Below are positions 54,071 to 61,158 of a stretch of DNA of 64,000 bases, in pieces; positions within the stretch are counted from its first letter, which is position 1, and each line of letters starts with the position of its first letter. The notes under the pieces were generated by a model, which was given only the letters and a program-made list of their open reading frames with translations, did no database searches and was not told where the DNA came from. The DNA lies in contig DASXDT010000006.1 in NCBI GenBank assembly GCA_036490475.1, positions 496,001 to 560,000 of the forward strand. Direction: 5' to 3'. This DNA is from Candidatus Tumulicola sp. Its GTDB lineage: Bacteria > Vulcanimicrobiota > Vulcanimicrobiia > Vulcanimicrobiales > Vulcanimicrobiaceae. Position numbers and translations under genes: made by a program.

Positions 54071-57000
54071 TTAGTCTCCGCCGAGGACTGCCGAAGCCGT
54101 TCCAGTCCCCGACCAAACGGCGTGCACCGGCGCTAGGGTAAACTGGTGTTCGCTGTGGTTCGGCCACGTCAAACGATACTTTTCGATCTTCTGAGTTTTG
54201 CCGTAGCCGCCGCTTGCTAGAAGATCGGCCCCGATCGTCGTCGAGGTTGCTGCGACGTGCACCGACGAACCGGCAAAGGGTCTGAACGAAGCGATCGCGC
54301 TAAAGTTCGAAGCCATCTCATGCATCGCGCTGTGCAGGTACATCTTCGGAGCGCCTTGGAGCGTGGTCGTGGTCGAGAGCACTTTTACCATACCGGCTCC
54401 GCCAAGTTGACCGACGGCAATTGCTTCGGCGCCGCCATATTGACCCGCGAGCCAACCCGTCGCGACCGAAATCGGTCCGCGATAGCCTTCGCCAAACGGC
54501 ATGAACGAAGCATCGAGATGCGGCGTGCCGGGATTGTTCGGCCACGCCGGCGCCGCACCGATCGGCGTCATCAACGAGTACGAGAACACGTTGACTCGGC
54601 CGCCGCTGTTGGCAGCGGTAACGATGCTGTTGCGTCCGGTAAGGAAGTCGACGAAGCCGGCAGCCAGGTTCACACCTGACGTATCGTCGCCGTATGGTTC
54701 GAACGTTGCGAACGTCGCCGGCGCCGTGCCGCCGGCGGGTAGTTCACTGCTAAAAATGCGAACCCGATCTTTGCTCCCGGCACCGGAGCCGACGATGATG
54801 TTGTCCGGCGATCGACCATCGATTTGGGTGGATGCAACGCTCACGCCACCGGTCTGCGAAGCGTCGAACGCTTGGAAGCGCGCAAGCTCGGTCGTGAACG
54901 GCTTTTCTCCGCTGCCGGGCGCTCCGGAATACGCCACGATTTCGGGTGCGTGCCCCTTACCGGCACCGACGATGAGATCGTACACCCCGTCGCCGTCGAC
55001 ATCACCCATGCTCACGCTCGGCGTGCCGAAGAAATCCGGGAACGGCGTTACGCTTGCGATCAGGCGATCGCCGTTACCATCGAAAACGTTGACGATCGCG
55101 GGATGTCCCGGCGAGCCCGGAACTGCCACCGCGTAGTCGGAGACGGCGGGAATGACGTTGACGAGCATCATCAGGCCGTTGTCTTCATGGTTGAGCCGGT
55201 GACAATGCAGCACGTACAGTCCTAAGTAGTCGATAAAGTGCGTGCGCATCGACAGGGTGCCCGGCTGAATCACCGATTCTTCGGGCCCCAGCAGTGGAGC
55301 CGGGACGTTCGCGTTATCTTCGCCGTGCATTTGCGGTCCGAGCTTGAGGCCGGTCGTGGGATCGTGGTATGCCGTTACTTGAAAATCGTTCACGTGCACG
55401 TGAATCGGATGCGCATCGTTATTGTGGTTGATGAAGTCCCATTCTTCCACCGAACCGAGCCGCGCCTGAATCAACGGCACGTTCGGAAACGCATTTCCAA
55501 AAAACGCATAAACGAACGCCTTGGGATCTTGCTTGCTGGCGTGGTTGTTGAGAAAGCCGCCGTTGATGAGGATCGTGCGCTTAACATCGGGCGTGATTTT
55601 TGACAAGTCGTGGAACGGAGTCGGTGCGTTCAACTCCTGTCCAGGAACGAATGCGGTCGTAACGCCTTGCCCGGCCTCCGGGACGACGTTGAGAAGTGTC
55701 TGCGACGGAAACATGAAAAAGCCGTCGGCATAACTGACGGACTCCGGCAGTATACTCAACGAACCCAAATGTCCCGGCGGATTTTTCGTACCGTCGTTGG
55801 TGTACAGGATACCGGGCGCTGCGAGCGCGCGCGCGCCGGAACCGAGACCAGGCAACTCCATACGCAGGCCCCCATTGGCCGGCATGGTGACGGCGATGGC
55901 ATAACGAGAAGCGGGCGGAATCAGTAACTCCGTGCCGTCCATCTCGTGCGGATACTCGACTCGACCGTACGCGATGCCGTCTTGTCCGACGATCGCAATC
56001 TTTGGGTGATTGCCGGTGGCGGTTTCGGTGAGCCGCACGTTCATGTACGCGATGTCGCTAACGTTCGCGAGTACCCAAATTTCGGTCTGTCCCGGCTTGA
56101 CGTTTAACACCGGCTCGAACTGGCCGTTCACCGTGAACTGCGTATCGCGTTCGTAATCCGGCAGTTTGAGGTTCGCTTTCACGACCGGGCCGTCTTTATC
56201 GAACGGCGTGAAGCGCTGCAAGTTCGACGGGATAAATTGGAAGCGACCGCGCTTGTTTTCGATCGACAGCGGTCCGGTGTACCATACCGTGGCCCACTGC
56301 GTACCCTTTTTCGATTGTAAGAAGTTCACGGGCGCGAGCAGCGGACGATACGTGCCTTTGGCAAGCTGGTCGCCAGTGGGTTTGATCAGCGTGCTGACCC
56401 ACTGCGGCCAATTGGGGTTAGTCATCTGCGACATGCCGCCTTGACGATCGAAGACGGTGTTATATTGCAAAAGCATCGTACGGATCGGGATATTCTTTTG
56501 CGTGACCAGCGGTATATCGCTGTCGGCGCGTCCCACGAGCAGCATTCCAGCCAAGCCGAAGTACGTTTGCATCGCCGTAAGCGTGTGAAGATGACTGTGG
56601 TACCAGTACGTGCCCGGCGTCATGTTCTTGGGAATGTCGTACACGTACGTGTTCGACATGCCGGCATCGATGTGCAGCAGCACGTTGTCTGCGTTTCCGC
56701 GCGGGCTAACGTGCGCGCCATGAACGTGCAGGTTGAACGGCGCCGACGAAAGCATCGTTGGATACTTCGGCACGGTCTGCCCAACGGGCGTGTATTTCGG
56801 ATCGTAAAAATCCGGAATGCTAAGATTGCGCTGTTCGTTATTGATGTGGATGATCAACCGCTCGCCGGGCTCGACGTGGAGCGTTGGAGCGGGATACATG
56901 TGGCCACCCGACATTTGGCCATCGGACGACGATCCGCGCTGCACGGAATAGTCAAAGAGCAGCATGTTCTTGACCGGCTGGGCAACCGTGTCGAGAGTCG

Positions 57001-57163
57001 CCGTCGTCTGACGCGGCGTCAGGGTCACTTCGAGGATGCCGTCTTTGCTCGATAAGATTACTGGTTCCGCGAATGCGTGTCCGCCCTTTGCGGAATCGGC
57101 GGCAGATCCGGTCGCGAACGCTAACGCAACGAGCAAAACGGAAAAAGCAAAAACCCGCGTCAT
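54071..57163 (-). CDS. multicopper oxidase fused to an FG-GAP beta-propeller
   Basis: A 1030-residue exported protein; signal MTRVFAFSVLLVALAFATGSA, with AGGGGG 9 bp before the ATG. The first 680 residues or so are a three-domain multicopper oxidase (CotA/bilirubin-oxidase-like): HVHGAH near 146, WYHSHLHT, HPIHVHVNDF and HCHRLNHEDNGLM supply type 1 to 3 copper ligands, with a Met axial ligand. The last 300 residues hold FG-GAP/VCBS-like repeats (GDVDGDGVYDLIVGAGKG, PDNIIVGSGAGS, AEAIAVGQLGG) forming a propeller. The combination is unusual. It begins 149 bp after the RibF-like gene on the same strand. Confidence 0.92.
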   Translation of the reverse strand: MTRVFAFSVLLVALAFATGSAADSAKGGHAFAEPVILSSKDGILEVTLTPRQTTATLDTVAQPVKNMLLFDYSVQRGSSSDGQMSGGHMYPAPTLHVEPGERLIIHINNEQRNLSIPDFYDPKYTPVGQTVPKYPTMLSSAPFNLHVHGAHVSPRGNADNVLLHIDAGMSNTYVYDIPKNMTPGTYWYHSHLHTLTAMQTYFGLAGMLLVGRADSDIPLVTQKNIPIRTMLLQYNTVFDRQGGMSQMTNPNWPQWVSTLIKPTGDQLAKGTYRPLLAPVNFLQSKKGTQWATVWYTGPLSIENKRGRFQFIPSNLQRFTPFDKDGPVVKANLKLPDYERDTQFTVNGQFEPVLNVKPGQTEIWVLANVSDIAYMNVRLTETATGNHPKIAIVGQDGIAYGRVEYPHEMDGTELLIPPASRYAIAVTMPANGGLRMELPGLGSGARALAAPGILYTNDGTKNPPGHLGSLSILPESVSYADGFFMFPSQTLLNVVPEAGQGVTTAFVPGQELNAPTPFHDLSKITPDVKRTILINGGFLNNHASKQDPKAFVYAFFGNAFPNVPLIQARLGSVEEWDFINHNNDAHPIHVHVNDFQVTAYHDPTTGLKLGPQMHGEDNANVPAPLLGPEESVIQPGTLSMRTHFIDYLGLYVLHCHRLNHEDNGLMMLVNVIPAVSDYAVAVPGSPGHPAIVNVFDGNGDRLIASVTPFPDFFGTPSVSMGDVDGDGVYDLIVGAGKGHAPEIVAYSGAPGSGEKPFTTELARFQAFDASQTGGVSVASTQIDGRSPDNIIVGSGAGSKDRVRIFSSELPAGGTAPATFATFEPYGDDTSGVNLAAGFVDFLTGRNSIVTAANSGGRVNVFSYSLMTPIGAAPAWPNNPGTPHLDASFMPFGEGYRGPISVATGWLAGQYGGAEAIAVGQLGGAGMVKVLSTTTTLQGAPKMYLHSAMHEMASNFSAIASFRPFAGSSVHVAATSTTIGADLLASGGYGKTQKIEKYRLTWPNHSEHQFTLAPVHAVWSGTGTASAVLGGD

Positions 57164-57312
57164 TGCAATAAGCCCCCTAAGGTGCAGCGCGATATGAGCG
57201 GCGAGTTGCATGGAACGTCCGCGCGGTCCTGGCGGATGAACCCTCGGGATTATGGAACGTCGTACGCTAGCGGTTGCCTGCTCTCGTTTTCTACGCCGCG
57301 AGACCTACTGCC

Positions 57313-58167
57313 CTAGAGTCCACCAACAGATTGCGGCGCTTGGACATCGTAGTTTCCGAGATCGCTTCTGAGATCACTCAGCAATCCAGTCGTGTATCGA
57401 TCCGTATCCGCCGGTCCTCTTGCAAATAAAAGCCATCGTATCTCTCGACTTGGCCATTCGAAGTAACGCCGGAGCGGTGAAATTCGATGGATTTCTATGG
57501 GAACCGGCTGGCGCGTAACTCGTAAACTGAACGAAGGTTCCGCAATCGGCAGCGCTAGATATCGGCCAGGCGGCCAATGTAGCTGTAATCGTCCAGCTCT
57601 CGGACGTCCCCAAATGGGCGGATGACCCGTGGCCCTGATCGCATCTCTCAGTTTTCCCTGCGACGCTAGATTGAGTGCACCACGGCCGGCGAGAAGACCC
57701 GATTGACCGCCCAGTCTCCGCAGCGAAATGCGACGGGTTTTAGCGAGCGCGGCGATTGCATCGTAGGACCCCTGGCGTCCTCGACCGAGCGACTGGTTCG
57801 GGCCTAGCCAGAGCTCGCGGAGGTTGACTCGTGTATTCAATAGATCGACAAAGTCTTCACATGACGCGTCGATATCAAAATTTGTCATGCGTACAACTAA
57901 GACGCGAACATTCCCGAACTCCCGAATCAACGCGAGACGCGCCTCCAATGCCGAGTATGCTAAGCAACCATCGTATCGGGGATTAACGAAGGTTGCTGGA
58001 GCTGGAAACAAGATTATTGCAAGCGCAGCCAGCCCCGTGTCCGTTCCAGCTCGCGACATTTGATGAAAAAGATCGAAATGAGCATCCGACAGCGGATCGA
58101 AGGCACCGACGACTGCGACTACGGAAGACCCTATTGGGATAGTCGAATGTCGTTCTGAAATCCTCAC
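57313..58167 (-). CDS. divergent RibF-like (FAD synthetase-like) nucleotidyltransferase in lanthipeptide locus
   Basis: A 284-residue protein. The N-terminal part is a HIGH-type nucleotidyltransferase fold: VVGAFDPLSDAHFDLF in place of the usual G-x-F-D-G-x-H-x-G-H, and LGPNQSLGRGRQGSYDAIAAL aligned with the RibF flavin site. The ISSTxIR motif of true FAD synthetases is missing (region GQSGLLAGRGALNLA). The C-terminal GRPRAGRLQLHWPPGRYLAL resembles a shortened riboflavin-kinase barrel lacking PTxN. Its ATG overlaps the LanKC stop (ATGA). A changed role in peptide maturation or cofactor supply is possible; the activity is unproven. Confidence 0.65.
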   Translation of the reverse strand: MRISERHSTIPIGSSVVAVVGAFDPLSDAHFDLFHQMSRAGTDTGLAALAIILFPAPATFVNPRYDGCLAYSALEARLALIREFGNVRVLVVRMTNFDIDASCEDFVDLLNTRVNLRELWLGPNQSLGRGRQGSYDAIAALAKTRRISLRRLGGQSGLLAGRGALNLASQGKLRDAIRATGHPPIWGRPRAGRLQLHWPPGRYLALPIAEPSFSLRVTRQPVPIEIHRISPLRRYFEWPSREIRWLLFARGPADTDRYTTGLLSDLRSDLGNYDVQAPQSVGGL

Positions 58168-60773
58168 GTGCCGTAGTAGTCGCTAGCGCACGTCGTTAGC
58201 CACGTTCCCGATAACAACGGCACGGGCTTGTTTTGTGAATAGAGGGCGAGAGCCGTAGCTGGGCCCAGAAAGCCTACCCATAAATCGGGGGTGAGGCGCC
58301 TAGGATCTTCGGAAGCCCAAATACTCAAGCCGCCGGTTCGTTGAAGTTGCAAGCGGAGCACGTTTGCCGCGGTTCGGCTTCTGCCCGATGCTCTTTGATA
58401 CAAGCGCGGATATTTTTCTACCAGACGCCATAGTTCAAGTTCGCCGGCTATCCCGTGACAGTACACAGGGCTTCCAATCGATCTCGTACTCGAGCACAGA
58501 TCCACACACCAATCGATTGCGCGCTTCAGTTGTTCGTCGTCGCCGAGTGCGGACAGCATACACCAGAGATATCCGGCGACTCCATGGCACCATGACGGCA
58601 CCATGACGGCAGCATCGCTTTTACCAACTCGATGTCGAAGCGCCGATCCTCCTCGCACGCGACCGAAGCGATACAGGCGGTCGAACGTTTCGATCGCAAG
58701 GTCGGTCGCATCGGACTCGCCGGTCGCCTTCCCCCAGATCGACAACGCCAGGGCGATCCCAGCCGATCCGTGCGCCGCACCAGTGAGCGGCGGCTCGTTT
58801 GCGTCGCAACTCGGCCAAACGTAGAGCTTATCTTGTAATGAAGCGTTTTCGATCAAGCTCTTCGCGCAAGGCGCGGCACGATCGAGTAGGTTGCGATCGT
58901 CGAGAATTTGCGCGAGCAAACAACCGGCCCAAAGGACGCCCGCGCTTCCAGAGAACAAATCGAAGTCCCCTTCGACGGTCAGGCTCTTCGACAAATATTT
59001 GTGCGCCGCGGCTATAAAGGCCGGCTTCCGAAATCGCTTACCGGCTACGGCAAGCGCGACTGCAACTCCAGCATTTCCCGTGAAGAACCCGTTCGCGTTT
59101 GGTTCGGGTTCCCGGCTTTCGAGATGCTGTGCTCCACGAATGATATCCTCGTCAAAAATGCGAGTGCGGCACGCCTCGTCGATCGTCATGAGACCCAGAA
59201 GAATCCCGGCGCTTCCTATGTTTATCCCATGTAGGGGAGCCGCATCTTGGTCAGTTTCACTTTTCCAAACGCACCCGTTACCCATGTCTCGCCGGTAGCG
59301 CCGTGTGGCTACACCTGCTTCGACGGCGCTGCGTAGACACCAGCGCGTACGTCGGTCGCGACCCCGCGTCCGTTGAACGCTCGACGGCGTGAGATCCCGT
59401 AACCGAATGGCTGCTTCGGCCGCGCTCGGGCGACGTGAAGCGTCGAGTTGCAACAGTTCTCTTACAACTCGGACTGCCTGTGGATACCCGAGTTGTTGCA
59501 GGAGTCCCACGATGCGTCCGCCACCGATTGCTAATCCGGCCGGATCAATTTTTAGAAAAACGTGCGCGGCGCAAACTCCCAATGCGTAGACATCCATTGC
59601 CGGCGTTCTACGATCGGCGGCTTCGGGTGCGAGATAACCGACCGTTCCTCTCGACTCGCCAACTTTCGAATCGATCGGTACGGACAGCTCAAAATCGACG
59701 AGGCGAACGTTCGACTCTCTAGCGATCACGTTAGCCAACTTGACATCGCCGTGAATGAATCCGACCGAGTGGAGTTGAGCAATCCGCAAAGCCAACCACG
59801 ACAGCGCACGCACTTGTGTTTCAAAGTCTAATTCCAGGTAATGCCGGCCCTCTACGTACTCCGTTACGAGGATTGCGAAATCACGATCGCAAGAATAGTC
59901 GACCGGGAGCGGCGCCAACTCGTCGAACGGCTGCAGCTTTTGCAAAACTGCGAATTCTTGTCCCAGTCCTACCGTCTGGAAATTTTCCGACTTACCGACG
60001 CCAACGCCTCGGCGTCGTACCTTCAGTAAGACCTCTTTACCATCTGATAGCCGAAGACCCAACAATACGTTGCCCAGAGCTGAGCGGTGAAGCAGCATCA
60101 GCGGCAGATACGAATCGCTTCCAATCGACAAGGAGGCCGACATATCCGGAACGGCGGGAACTAAACCGGTGATTGGCGGCGTCGCCCAGTTCGGTTGCCG
60201 CCCGTCCACACTGCGAACGTCTTCATTGATTCTGCCGAGCTCGTCGTGTATCGAAGGAACATTTTTGCCGAAGCGGTCGACGACCGTTTCACCCGTAAAA
60301 CTCCCGTATCGAACAAAAACGGACCCTCCCGGACGAACCGCGAGATCCGAGGGAACGGCTGGGCCGGTGCTGCTTGGCCAGAGATCGTCTAATGCCATCG
60401 CCAGGCGCGCCGCGTCGTCATCGCTGCCCGGATAAACGGTAATGATCTTTCCGGTCTGCGTCGCGCCAAACTGGCCCGAATTTACGCAAAAGATTGAATT
60501 ACGATCTGCTAAAATCTTGAACGTTGCGCGCTGCTCGATCAACCAAGGAACGATCGACGAGTTCAGACCATTGGCGTCGGCTGTCGAAGCGCTGATATGG
60601 ATCTTCCAACCCTGGCTTGGGAGCGCTCTGCCTTGGCATTCGACTTGATACCAACAAAGATTGCCAGACCGACGCGAATGGACGCGCCACGAGCAGTCGA
60701 GACTGTCGAGTAGCGATTGTAATGCGTCCGTATATTCCAGAGCAGGCTCGACTATGCCATGCAGGGGCTGCAC
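58164..60773 (-). CDS. class III/IV lanthipeptide synthetase (LanKC/LanL, lyase-kinase-cyclase)
   Basis: An 869-residue three-domain enzyme. Residues 1-200: phospho-Ser/Thr lyase (GWKIHISAS at 55-63). Residues 215-465: Ser/Thr kinase with Lys251, HGDVKLANV at 341-349 and DFE at 360-362. Residues 510-869: LanC-like cyclase with FTGNAGVA, GAAHGSAG (His668), SWCHGVAG (Cys729) and YCHGIAG (Cys772, His773). The intact Cys/Cys-His zinc set points to class IV (LanL). It phosphorylates and eliminates Ser/Thr in the precursor, then forms thioether rings. Start GTG, 26 bp after the precursor stop. Confidence 0.92.
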   Translation of the reverse strand: MQPLHGIVEPALEYTDALQSLLDSLDCSWRVHSRRSGNLCWYQVECQGRALPSQGWKIHISASTADANGLNSSIVPWLIEQRATFKILADRNSIFCVNSGQFGATQTGKIITVYPGSDDDAARLAMALDDLWPSSTGPAVPSDLAVRPGGSVFVRYGSFTGETVVDRFGKNVPSIHDELGRINEDVRSVDGRQPNWATPPITGLVPAVPDMSASLSIGSDSYLPLMLLHRSALGNVLLGLRLSDGKEVLLKVRRRGVGVGKSENFQTVGLGQEFAVLQKLQPFDELAPLPVDYSCDRDFAILVTEYVEGRHYLELDFETQVRALSWLALRIAQLHSVGFIHGDVKLANVIARESNVRLVDFELSVPIDSKVGESRGTVGYLAPEAADRRTPAMDVYALGVCAAHVFLKIDPAGLAIGGGRIVGLLQQLGYPQAVRVVRELLQLDASRRPSAAEAAIRLRDLTPSSVQRTRGRDRRTRWCLRSAVEAGVATRRYRRDMGNGCVWKSETDQDAAPLHGINIGSAGILLGLMTIDEACRTRIFDEDIIRGAQHLESREPEPNANGFFTGNAGVAVALAVAGKRFRKPAFIAAAHKYLSKSLTVEGDFDLFSGSAGVLWAGCLLAQILDDRNLLDRAAPCAKSLIENASLQDKLYVWPSCDANEPPLTGAAHGSAGIALALSIWGKATGESDATDLAIETFDRLYRFGRVRGGSALRHRVGKSDAAVMVPSWCHGVAGYLWCMLSALGDDEQLKRAIDWCVDLCSSTRSIGSPVYCHGIAGELELWRLVEKYPRLYQRASGRSRTAANVLRLQLQRTGGLSIWASEDPRRLTPDLWVGFLGPATALALYSQNKPVPLLSGTWLTTCASDYYGT

Positions 60774-60799
60774 GGATGCGACGCTTTAGTTGATTTCCC

Positions 60800-61093
60800 T
60801 TAGGAGATGTGTATAGTCGTGATCACGCATCTCGTAAACCAACAAGTCGTGGTACAGGTTATGTAACAGTCTTCATGAGTTTCAAGAGCCATGTCACTAA
60901 GTAGCTCGTTCTGGACATCTTCGCTGATACCGAAAGCTCCAAGAACTGCTCGCGGGTTCGCTTTCAGCTCGTCAGAAAACTTCGAGTGCGATTTAATTTC
61001 CTTTTGGATTCGATCCACAGCTTTTCGAACATCGGCCAAGCTCGGGTAGAGAACGCCGTCCACGAGTTTCGTTTCTTTGTGATCGTGATGCAT
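60800..61093 (-). CDS. lanthipeptide precursor with NHLP-like leader and C-x-x-T repeat core
   Basis: A 97-residue precursor; ATG with AAGGAG at 6-7 bp upstream, chosen over a longer frame lacking such a site. Residues 1-70 form a charged helical leader with SKFSDELKANPRAVLGAFGI (38-57), the nitrile-hydratase-type (NHLP) signature. The core begins near residue 71: ETHEDC then four tetrads CYIT-CTTT-CWFT-R-CVIT (Cys76, 80, 84, 89) and TIHIS. It supplies four Cys and nine Ser/Thr. No Gly-Gly cleavage site is present before the core. The synthetase gene follows after 26 bp. Confidence 0.88.
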   Translation of the reverse strand: MHHDHKETKLVDGVLYPSLADVRKAVDRIQKEIKSHSKFSDELKANPRAVLGAFGISEDVQNELLSDMALETHEDCYITCTTTCWFTRCVITTIHIS

Positions 61094-61138
61094 CACTAAC
61101 TCCTTAAGCAGTAGCGTCGGGGTTTTCGCGACACGCGG

Positions 61139-61158
61139 CGCGGTTGGGCCCAACCGCG
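61139..61158 (-). promoter_or_regulatory. perfect 20-bp palindrome upstream of the lanthipeptide precursor
   Basis: CGCGGTTGGG/CCCAACCGCG reads identically on both strands without a spacer. It lies 46-65 bp before the precursor start codon, where an operator would overlap the promoter or early transcript. Next to it (61162-61176) is a smaller repeat TTCTG-TTCTT-CAGAA. No regulator gene is adjacent. Confidence 0.55.

What the first reader, a model, noticed from the sequence alone, without database searches (positions are those of the whole stretch)
57313..61158. Compact lanthipeptide locus: precursor, LanKC/LanL and a RibF-like enzyme
Seen: precursor (97 aa), three-domain lyase-kinase-cyclase and a nucleotidyltransferase-like gene in one minus-strand unit, with 26-bp spacing and an ATGA overlap. 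Known: class III/IV enzymes install lanthionine or labionin rings. Inferred: the zinc ligands Cys729, Cys772 and His773 make it class IV-like. There is no transporter or peptidase within several kb, so export and leader removal must be supplied elsewhere. I know of no described locus with this gene set.
Basis: partly seen in the sequence, partly recalled or inferred. Interest (0 to 1): 0.85.

Follow-up and report, generated by a model that had tools for sequence, protein, structure and literature searches.

The report
Lanthipeptide operon with disarmed FAD synthetase
Three adjacent genes appear to make a ring-bearing (lanthipeptide) peptide, and the third encodes a cofactor-making protein that has lost its catalytic residues and travels with the peptide-modifying enzyme in at least one other, unrelated bacterium, which suggests that an old metabolic fold was recruited into peptide maturation.

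Summary
In detail: a 97-aa precursor (61093-60800), an 869-aa lyase-kinase-cyclase (60773-58164) and a 284-aa RibF-like gene (58167-57313) form one minus-strand operon (the overlap is GTGA, not ATGA). The synthetase is a class IV-type LanL. All 15 lyase, kinase, cyclase and zinc residues checked are intact, and it lies in a monophyletic zinc-ligand clade of 41 sequences. It belongs to a distinct nine-member subfamily (support 1.0) found in Nitrospira, another proteobacteria-like MAG lineage and actinobacteria. A related precursor lies just upstream of the synthetase in 9 of 9 loci. 'RibF-like enzyme' is doubtful, however. Both LanL-linked copies lack residues shown to be needed for FMN adenylylation in the C. 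ammoniagenes enzyme (first His of HxGH, SSTxxR), and the riboflavin-kinase PTAN motif is absent from the window copy. All genomes examined keep a separate intact RibF. My best reading is a RibF-derived non-catalytic (or repurposed) accessory protein for a class IV lanthipeptide synthetase. No product, modification or function of the third protein is shown. New variant of a known kind.

The parts
60800..61093 (-). Precursor peptide, 97 aa, ATG start; leader related to the NHLP-type leaders of relatives, core ...ETHEDCYITCTTTCWFTRCVITTIHIS with four Cys and a conserved C-x4-C pair (Cys84, Cys89)
   Evidence: homologous small ORF upstream of 9 of 9 subfamily LanLs
58164..60773 (-). Class IV-type lanthipeptide synthetase LanL, 869 aa: phospho-Ser/Thr lyase (RamC_N about 35-200), Ser/Thr kinase (about 230-460), LanC-like zinc cyclase (about 520-845)
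57313..58167 (-). RibF-derived protein, 284 aa, GTG start overlapping the LanL stop (GTGA): degenerate FMN-adenylyltransferase domain (15-149) plus degenerate riboflavin-kinase-like tail
   Evidence: orthologue behind LanL in L152

Best explanation
This is a small class IV-type lanthipeptide biosynthetic operon, probably acquired horizontally. LanL would bind the leader of the precursor, its kinase would phosphorylate Thr/Ser in the core, its lyase would eliminate phosphate to give dehydro-residues, and its zinc cyclase would add Cys thiols to form (methyl)lanthionine rings (inferred from intact residues, not shown). The third protein descends from bifunctional FAD synthetase (RibF) but has very probably lost FMN adenylylation and riboflavin phosphorylation. 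I propose that it works beside LanL as a non-catalytic or repurposed accessory protein, for example holding the precursor or a phosphorylated or dehydrated intermediate. Its physical association with LanL and its ligand are inference. Export and leader removal would be supplied from elsewhere in the genome.
For: Domain profiles. All 15 checked lyase, kinase, cyclase and zinc residues intact. All 41 zinc-ligand sequences form one clade apart from class III; subfamily of nine with support 1.0 and a long stem. Top structural match of the LanL model is class IV CuvL 8cav (model mean pLDDT 68). Precursors beside 9 of 9 subfamily LanLs. RibF-like gene directly at the LanL stop in G499 (L152), window-L152 match 2.7e-19 for the N-terminal part and 2.5e-9 for the tail, clade support 100, whereas the host's own RibF scores -1.2 bits against it. 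Loss of H28, H57 and SST in both copies, kept in all 11 ordinary RibFs compared; H28, H31 and N125 are each required in CaFADS (PMC3509593). Separate intact RibF in the own genome and in all ten LanL genomes checked; a second, weak copy occurs only in G499 (LanL-linked) and Tengunoibacter (about 6 kb from LanL). GC3 of the operon is 0.49-0.59 against 0.684 +/- 0.053 for 47 ORFs.
Against: Only two genomes show the exact three-gene order. The G499 RibF-like gene has a frameshift, so it is either decaying or misassembled. Seven of nine subfamily loci have no RibF-like gene, so it is not required for the subfamily in general. The window copy still has His at position 31 and Asn at 125, so a weak or altered catalysis is not excluded. 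The window precursor itself reaches no NHLP model. The RibF-like fold model is poor beyond residue 180.
Confidence: 0.6

Rival explanations
1. The third protein is an active tailoring nucleotidyltransferase: it adenylylates phospho-Ser/Thr made by the LanL kinase, giving a nucleotide-capped peptide or a better leaving group. RibF chemistry, AMP transfer to a phosphate monoester, would fit.
For: It keeps the GxFD strand, His31, Gly123 and Asn125 of the ATP site; it sits at the LanL stop in two genomes; the kinase supplies phospho-residues.
Against: The first HxGH His, the FxPHP His and the whole SSTxxR motif are gone in the window copy, the first two also in G499, which has lost H31 and N125 besides. 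Any substitution at H28 abolished FMN adenylylation in CaFADS.
Confidence: 0.12
2. The third protein is a flavin-binding helper: the former FMN site holds FMN as a redox cofactor (for example for oxidative decarboxylation of the C-terminus) or delivers FMN.
For: His mutants of CaFADS lose catalysis but keep FMN affinity; P56, P58 and an aromatic residue at 106 are retained.
Against: Pocket aromatics F54, F62 and F128 are replaced by L, V/N and L; no flavin-dependent chemistry is predicted from the core; no flavoenzyme lies nearby.
Confidence: 0.13
3. The RibF-like gene is a passenger or a decaying duplicate with no role in peptide maturation.
For: Absent from seven of nine subfamily loci; frameshifted in G499; other third genes occupy the place in relatives (PhyH in Nitrospira, acyltransferase in Microbispora).
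Against: Same place, same strand and stop-start overlap in two lineages whose LanLs are 38% identical; both domains still recognisable; the host RibF is not its source; extra RibF copies in the genomes surveyed occur only near LanL.
Confidence: 0.15

Closest known systems
Class IV lanthipeptide synthetases LanL (VenL, SgbL; solved: CuvL of curvocidin, 8car/8cav)
   Same: Lyase-kinase-zinc cyclase order, all checked residues, monophyly with other zinc-ligand enzymes
   Different: About 20-25% identity to CuvL; scores below the NCBIfam LanL cut-off; own subfamily; precursors with NHLP-type or divergent leaders rather than the known class IV leaders; RibF-like partner
Class III LanKC (ThurKC, PneKC, SalKC)
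   Same: Same three-domain order and lyase/kinase residues
   Different: Class III lacks the zinc ligands; here Cys729, Cys772 and His773 are present
Bifunctional riboflavin kinase/FAD synthetase RibF (CaFADS 2x0k)
   Same: Fold of the N-terminal domain and best PDB match by sequence and structure; retains GxFD, P56, P58, G123
   Different: HxGH, FxPHP His, SSTxxR and PTAN lost; not the host housekeeping copy
NHLP (nitrile hydratase leader) RiPP precursors
   Same: Seven of 16 aligned relatives of the precursor match NHLP models; same ...DPxAVLxxxGL... pattern
   Different: Reported for class II lanthipeptide families (PMC7268733), not class IV; the window precursor itself is below threshold

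Membership tests
Class IV lanthipeptide synthetase (LanL) | RamC-type lyase, protein kinase and LanC-like domains in one chain | tested here: met
Class IV lanthipeptide synthetase (LanL) | Cyclase zinc ligands Cys, Cys-His present (absent in class III) | tested here: met
   C729, C772, H773
Class IV lanthipeptide synthetase (LanL) | Groups with zinc-ligand enzymes rather than class III | tested here: met
   41 of 41 zinc-ligand sequences in one clade, (midpoint rooting)
Class IV lanthipeptide synthetase (LanL) | Score above the curated NCBIfam LanL cut-off (650 bits) | tested here: not met
   347.7 bits; divergent subfamily, so filed as class IV-type rather than as a NF038150 equivalog
Class IV lanthipeptide synthetase (LanL) | Dehydrates and cyclises a precursor | not testable with these tools
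   needs co-expression and mass spectrometry
Lanthipeptide gene cluster | Cognate precursor with Ser/Thr and Cys in the core next to the synthetase | tested here: met
   9 of 9 loci
RibF / FAD synthetase | HxGH and SSTxxR catalytic motifs | tested here: not met
RibF / FAD synthetase | Riboflavin kinase domain with PTAN motif | tested here: not met
RibF / FAD synthetase | Homology to the FAD_syn domain | tested here: met
NHLP-leader RiPP precursors | Match to TIGR03793 or a related model | tested here: inconclusive
   7 of 16 aligned relatives match, the window precursor does not

The most novel reading that the evidence does not exclude
A housekeeping FAD-synthetase fold, stripped of its catalytic motifs, has been recruited as a dedicated partner of a class IV lanthipeptide synthetase: a pseudoenzyme that binds the precursor or a phosphorylated or dehydrated intermediate. 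This may have happened more than once (window/G499 lineage, and separately Tengunoibacter).
Probability: 0.45. Interest if true: 0.7.

Novelty: new variant of a known kind. Interest (0 to 1): 0.57.

Why it matters
[quoted passage not shown] This subfamily spans several phyla and pairs the same synthetase with different third genes (PhyH dioxygenase, RibF-derived protein). It therefore offers a direct, simple co-expression test of whether accessory proteins tailor or assist class IV products. If the RibF-derived protein is needed, it would be a new use of the FAD-synthetase fold.

Tried and rejected
(1) Recent local duplication of the housekeeping RibF: rejected, since the own RibF (C6:43328-43777) is the worst match to the RibF-like protein among 22 sequences. 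(2) Class III assignment: rejected on zinc ligands and tree. (3) genome-contig scan with the RibF-like protein alone found nothing. (4) Plasmid RibF-like hits in Cupriavidus: no LanL within 8 kb and catalytic motifs intact, so only remote relatives. (5) Viral contigs: one distant LanKC only. (6) Tengunoibacter RibF-like as same clade: not supported by the tree; kept as a lead. (7) LanL search in 395 genomes drawn from G499's phylum gave only G499. (9) RibF-like fold prediction with three sequences was poor in the C-terminal half.

Full report
Observation. On the minus strand of the window lie a 97-aa precursor ORF (61093-60800), an 869-aa ORF (60773-58164) 26 bp downstream and a 284-aa ORF (58167-57313) whose GTG start overlaps the previous stop as GTGA. 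The 869-aa protein matches RamC_N, Pkinase and LANC_like; the 284-aa protein matches FAD_syn at residues 15-149.

The synthetase. NCBIfam prefers class IV LanL (347.7 bits) over class III LanKC (299.3), both below their cut-offs. The closest solved relative by sequence and by model comparison is CuvL, PDB 8car/8cav. Fifteen mapped residues (lyase K57, H59, K86, K109, Y114; kinase K251, E273, D343, N348, D360; cyclase D605, H668, C729, C772, H773) are all present, and across 88 homologues the zinc-ligand set marks one clade of 41 sequences. Which residues are catalytic is taken from general knowledge of these families; their presence is what was tested.

A subfamily. A genome-contig scan returned five homologues at E 1e-123 to 1e-168 (Candidatus Nitrospira defluvii, two Microbispora, Actinacidiphila, a 'Proteobacteria' MAG), well apart from the next group at 1e-58. 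Genome searches added G202, G499 and G747. These score 1180-1430 bits against the subfamily profile, except G499 at 797 bits (1239 with a profile that includes it), while the next best hits reach 400 or less. The nine form a clade with support 1.0. Among 149 genomes of the window's own phylum, no other has a subfamily member; the nearest there are ordinary class III enzymes and one zinc-bearing LanL-like protein at about 27% identity.

Precursors. Every subfamily LanL has a small ORF directly upstream on the same strand. The window and G499 precursors are homologous (phmmer 4.5e-8). The window core is ETHEDCYITCTTTCWFTRCVITTIHIS and the G499 core ELQLESGCYSCSGCCCTGCSYSG; Nitrospira has GAIHLCPWHTCAATRHG and Microbispora KRPCTYRRCPD. 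A C-x3/4-C pair is shared by all. Relatives outside the subfamily carry NHLP-type leaders: 7 of 16 aligned precursors match NHLP models, though the window one does not. NHLP leaders were listed for class II lanthipeptide families in a 2020 survey (PMC7268733).

The third gene. In G499 (L152) a RibF-like gene begins at the LanL stop codon (TTGA overlap) and is homologous to the window protein over both parts (2.7e-19 and 2.5e-9). It is split by one frameshift between the two parts, which may be an assembly error or decay. The two proteins form a clade with support 100, and each is closer to the other than to the housekeeping RibF of its own genome. Mapped to C. ammoniagenes FAD synthetase, both lack H28, H57 and an intact SST of SSTxxR; the window copy keeps H31 and N125, the G499 copy does not; all 11 ordinary RibFs compared keep H28, H31, H57 and the SS[T/S]xxR motif. 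In that enzyme any replacement of H28, H31 or N125 abolished FMN adenylylation, while His replacement had only minor effects on FMN affinity (PMC3509593). The riboflavin-kinase PTAN motif is also lost in the window copy. Each of ten LanL-bearing genomes has one strong RibF; only G499 and Tengunoibacter have an extra weaker one, LanL-linked in G499 and about 6 kb from a more distant LanL in Tengunoibacter. The own genome likewise has one intact RibF (127 bits) and the window copy (45 bits). In Nitrospira a PhyH dioxygenase, with a stop-start overlap in N. defluvii, occupies the same place, followed by a TauD-type dioxygenase. The third position is therefore variable, as is usual for tailoring or accessory genes.

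Origin and context. GC3 of the three genes is 0.51, 0.59 and 0.49 against a mean of 0.684 (sd 0.053) for 47 long ORFs of the window. Together with the scattered phyletic pattern this suggests horizontal acquisition. A tyrosine-recombinase fragment lies about 5 kb upstream, just outside the window. Neighbouring ORFs on both sides (multicopper oxidase-like, NHL-repeat-like lipoproteins, housekeeping genes) show no evident transporter or leader peptidase; this was read from translations, not profile-searched.

Mechanism. Most likely LanL phosphorylates, eliminates and cyclises core Thr/Ser and Cys residues (inferred), and the RibF-derived protein assists without FAD-synthetase chemistry (inferred from lost motifs plus conserved linkage). 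An adenylylating tailoring enzyme, a flavin-binding helper and a passenger gene remain possible, with the probabilities given.

Limits. That G499 belongs to another phylum than the window follows from its absence among the 149 genomes of the window's phylum and its retrieval from the class of G151.

Noticed in passing
L055, L057, L058, L157 (LanL position equivalent to K251): The four actinobacterial subfamily LanLs have Arg in place of the kinase VAIK-type Lys, with very short cores (such as KRPCTYRRCPD) in three of them; their kinase chemistry may differ.
   Followed up: partly
L054 12642-14449, L151 9497-11296, L056 8245-9228: PhyH-type dioxygenases (and a TauD-type one in Nitrospira) accompany the subfamily LanL, suggesting hydroxylated class IV products in Nitrospira.
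   Followed up: partly
L054 14627-16342, L151 11431-13089, L056 12525-13946 (minus strands): A conserved protein of about 470-570 aa, without Pfam match in L054 and L056, lies beside the PhyH/LanL genes in all three loci.
   Followed up: no
L064 18426-19517 (Tengunoibacter tsumagoiensis): A second degenerate RibF-like protein (no HxGH, no SSTxxR) about 6 kb from a LanL with at least six NHLP-leader precursor copies, next to a B12-binding radical SAM protein; not in the window/G499 RibF-like clade.
   Followed up: partly
L061 12687-13499, L064 13631-14479: A subtilase-family (S8) protease sits beside ktedonobacterial LanLs with NHLP-leader precursors, a candidate leader peptidase.
   Followed up: no
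L119 774-1610 (Aestuariivirga MAG): An ORF upstream of a LanL carries several tandem leader-core units (repeated ...GDCGHDTCRLTxPCGWTVCGKTTN...), apparently a multi-core or fused precursor.
   Followed up: no
L176 4121-4816 (about window coordinate 66120, outside the window): Tyrosine-recombinase C-terminal fragment about 5 kb upstream of the precursor, with lower GC3 (0.59) than most of its neighbours.
   Followed up: partly
window 54071-57211: A protein with multicopper-oxidase-like motifs fused to a C-terminal region resembling FG-GAP repeats lies directly downstream of the operon, with native GC3 (0.71).
   Followed up: no
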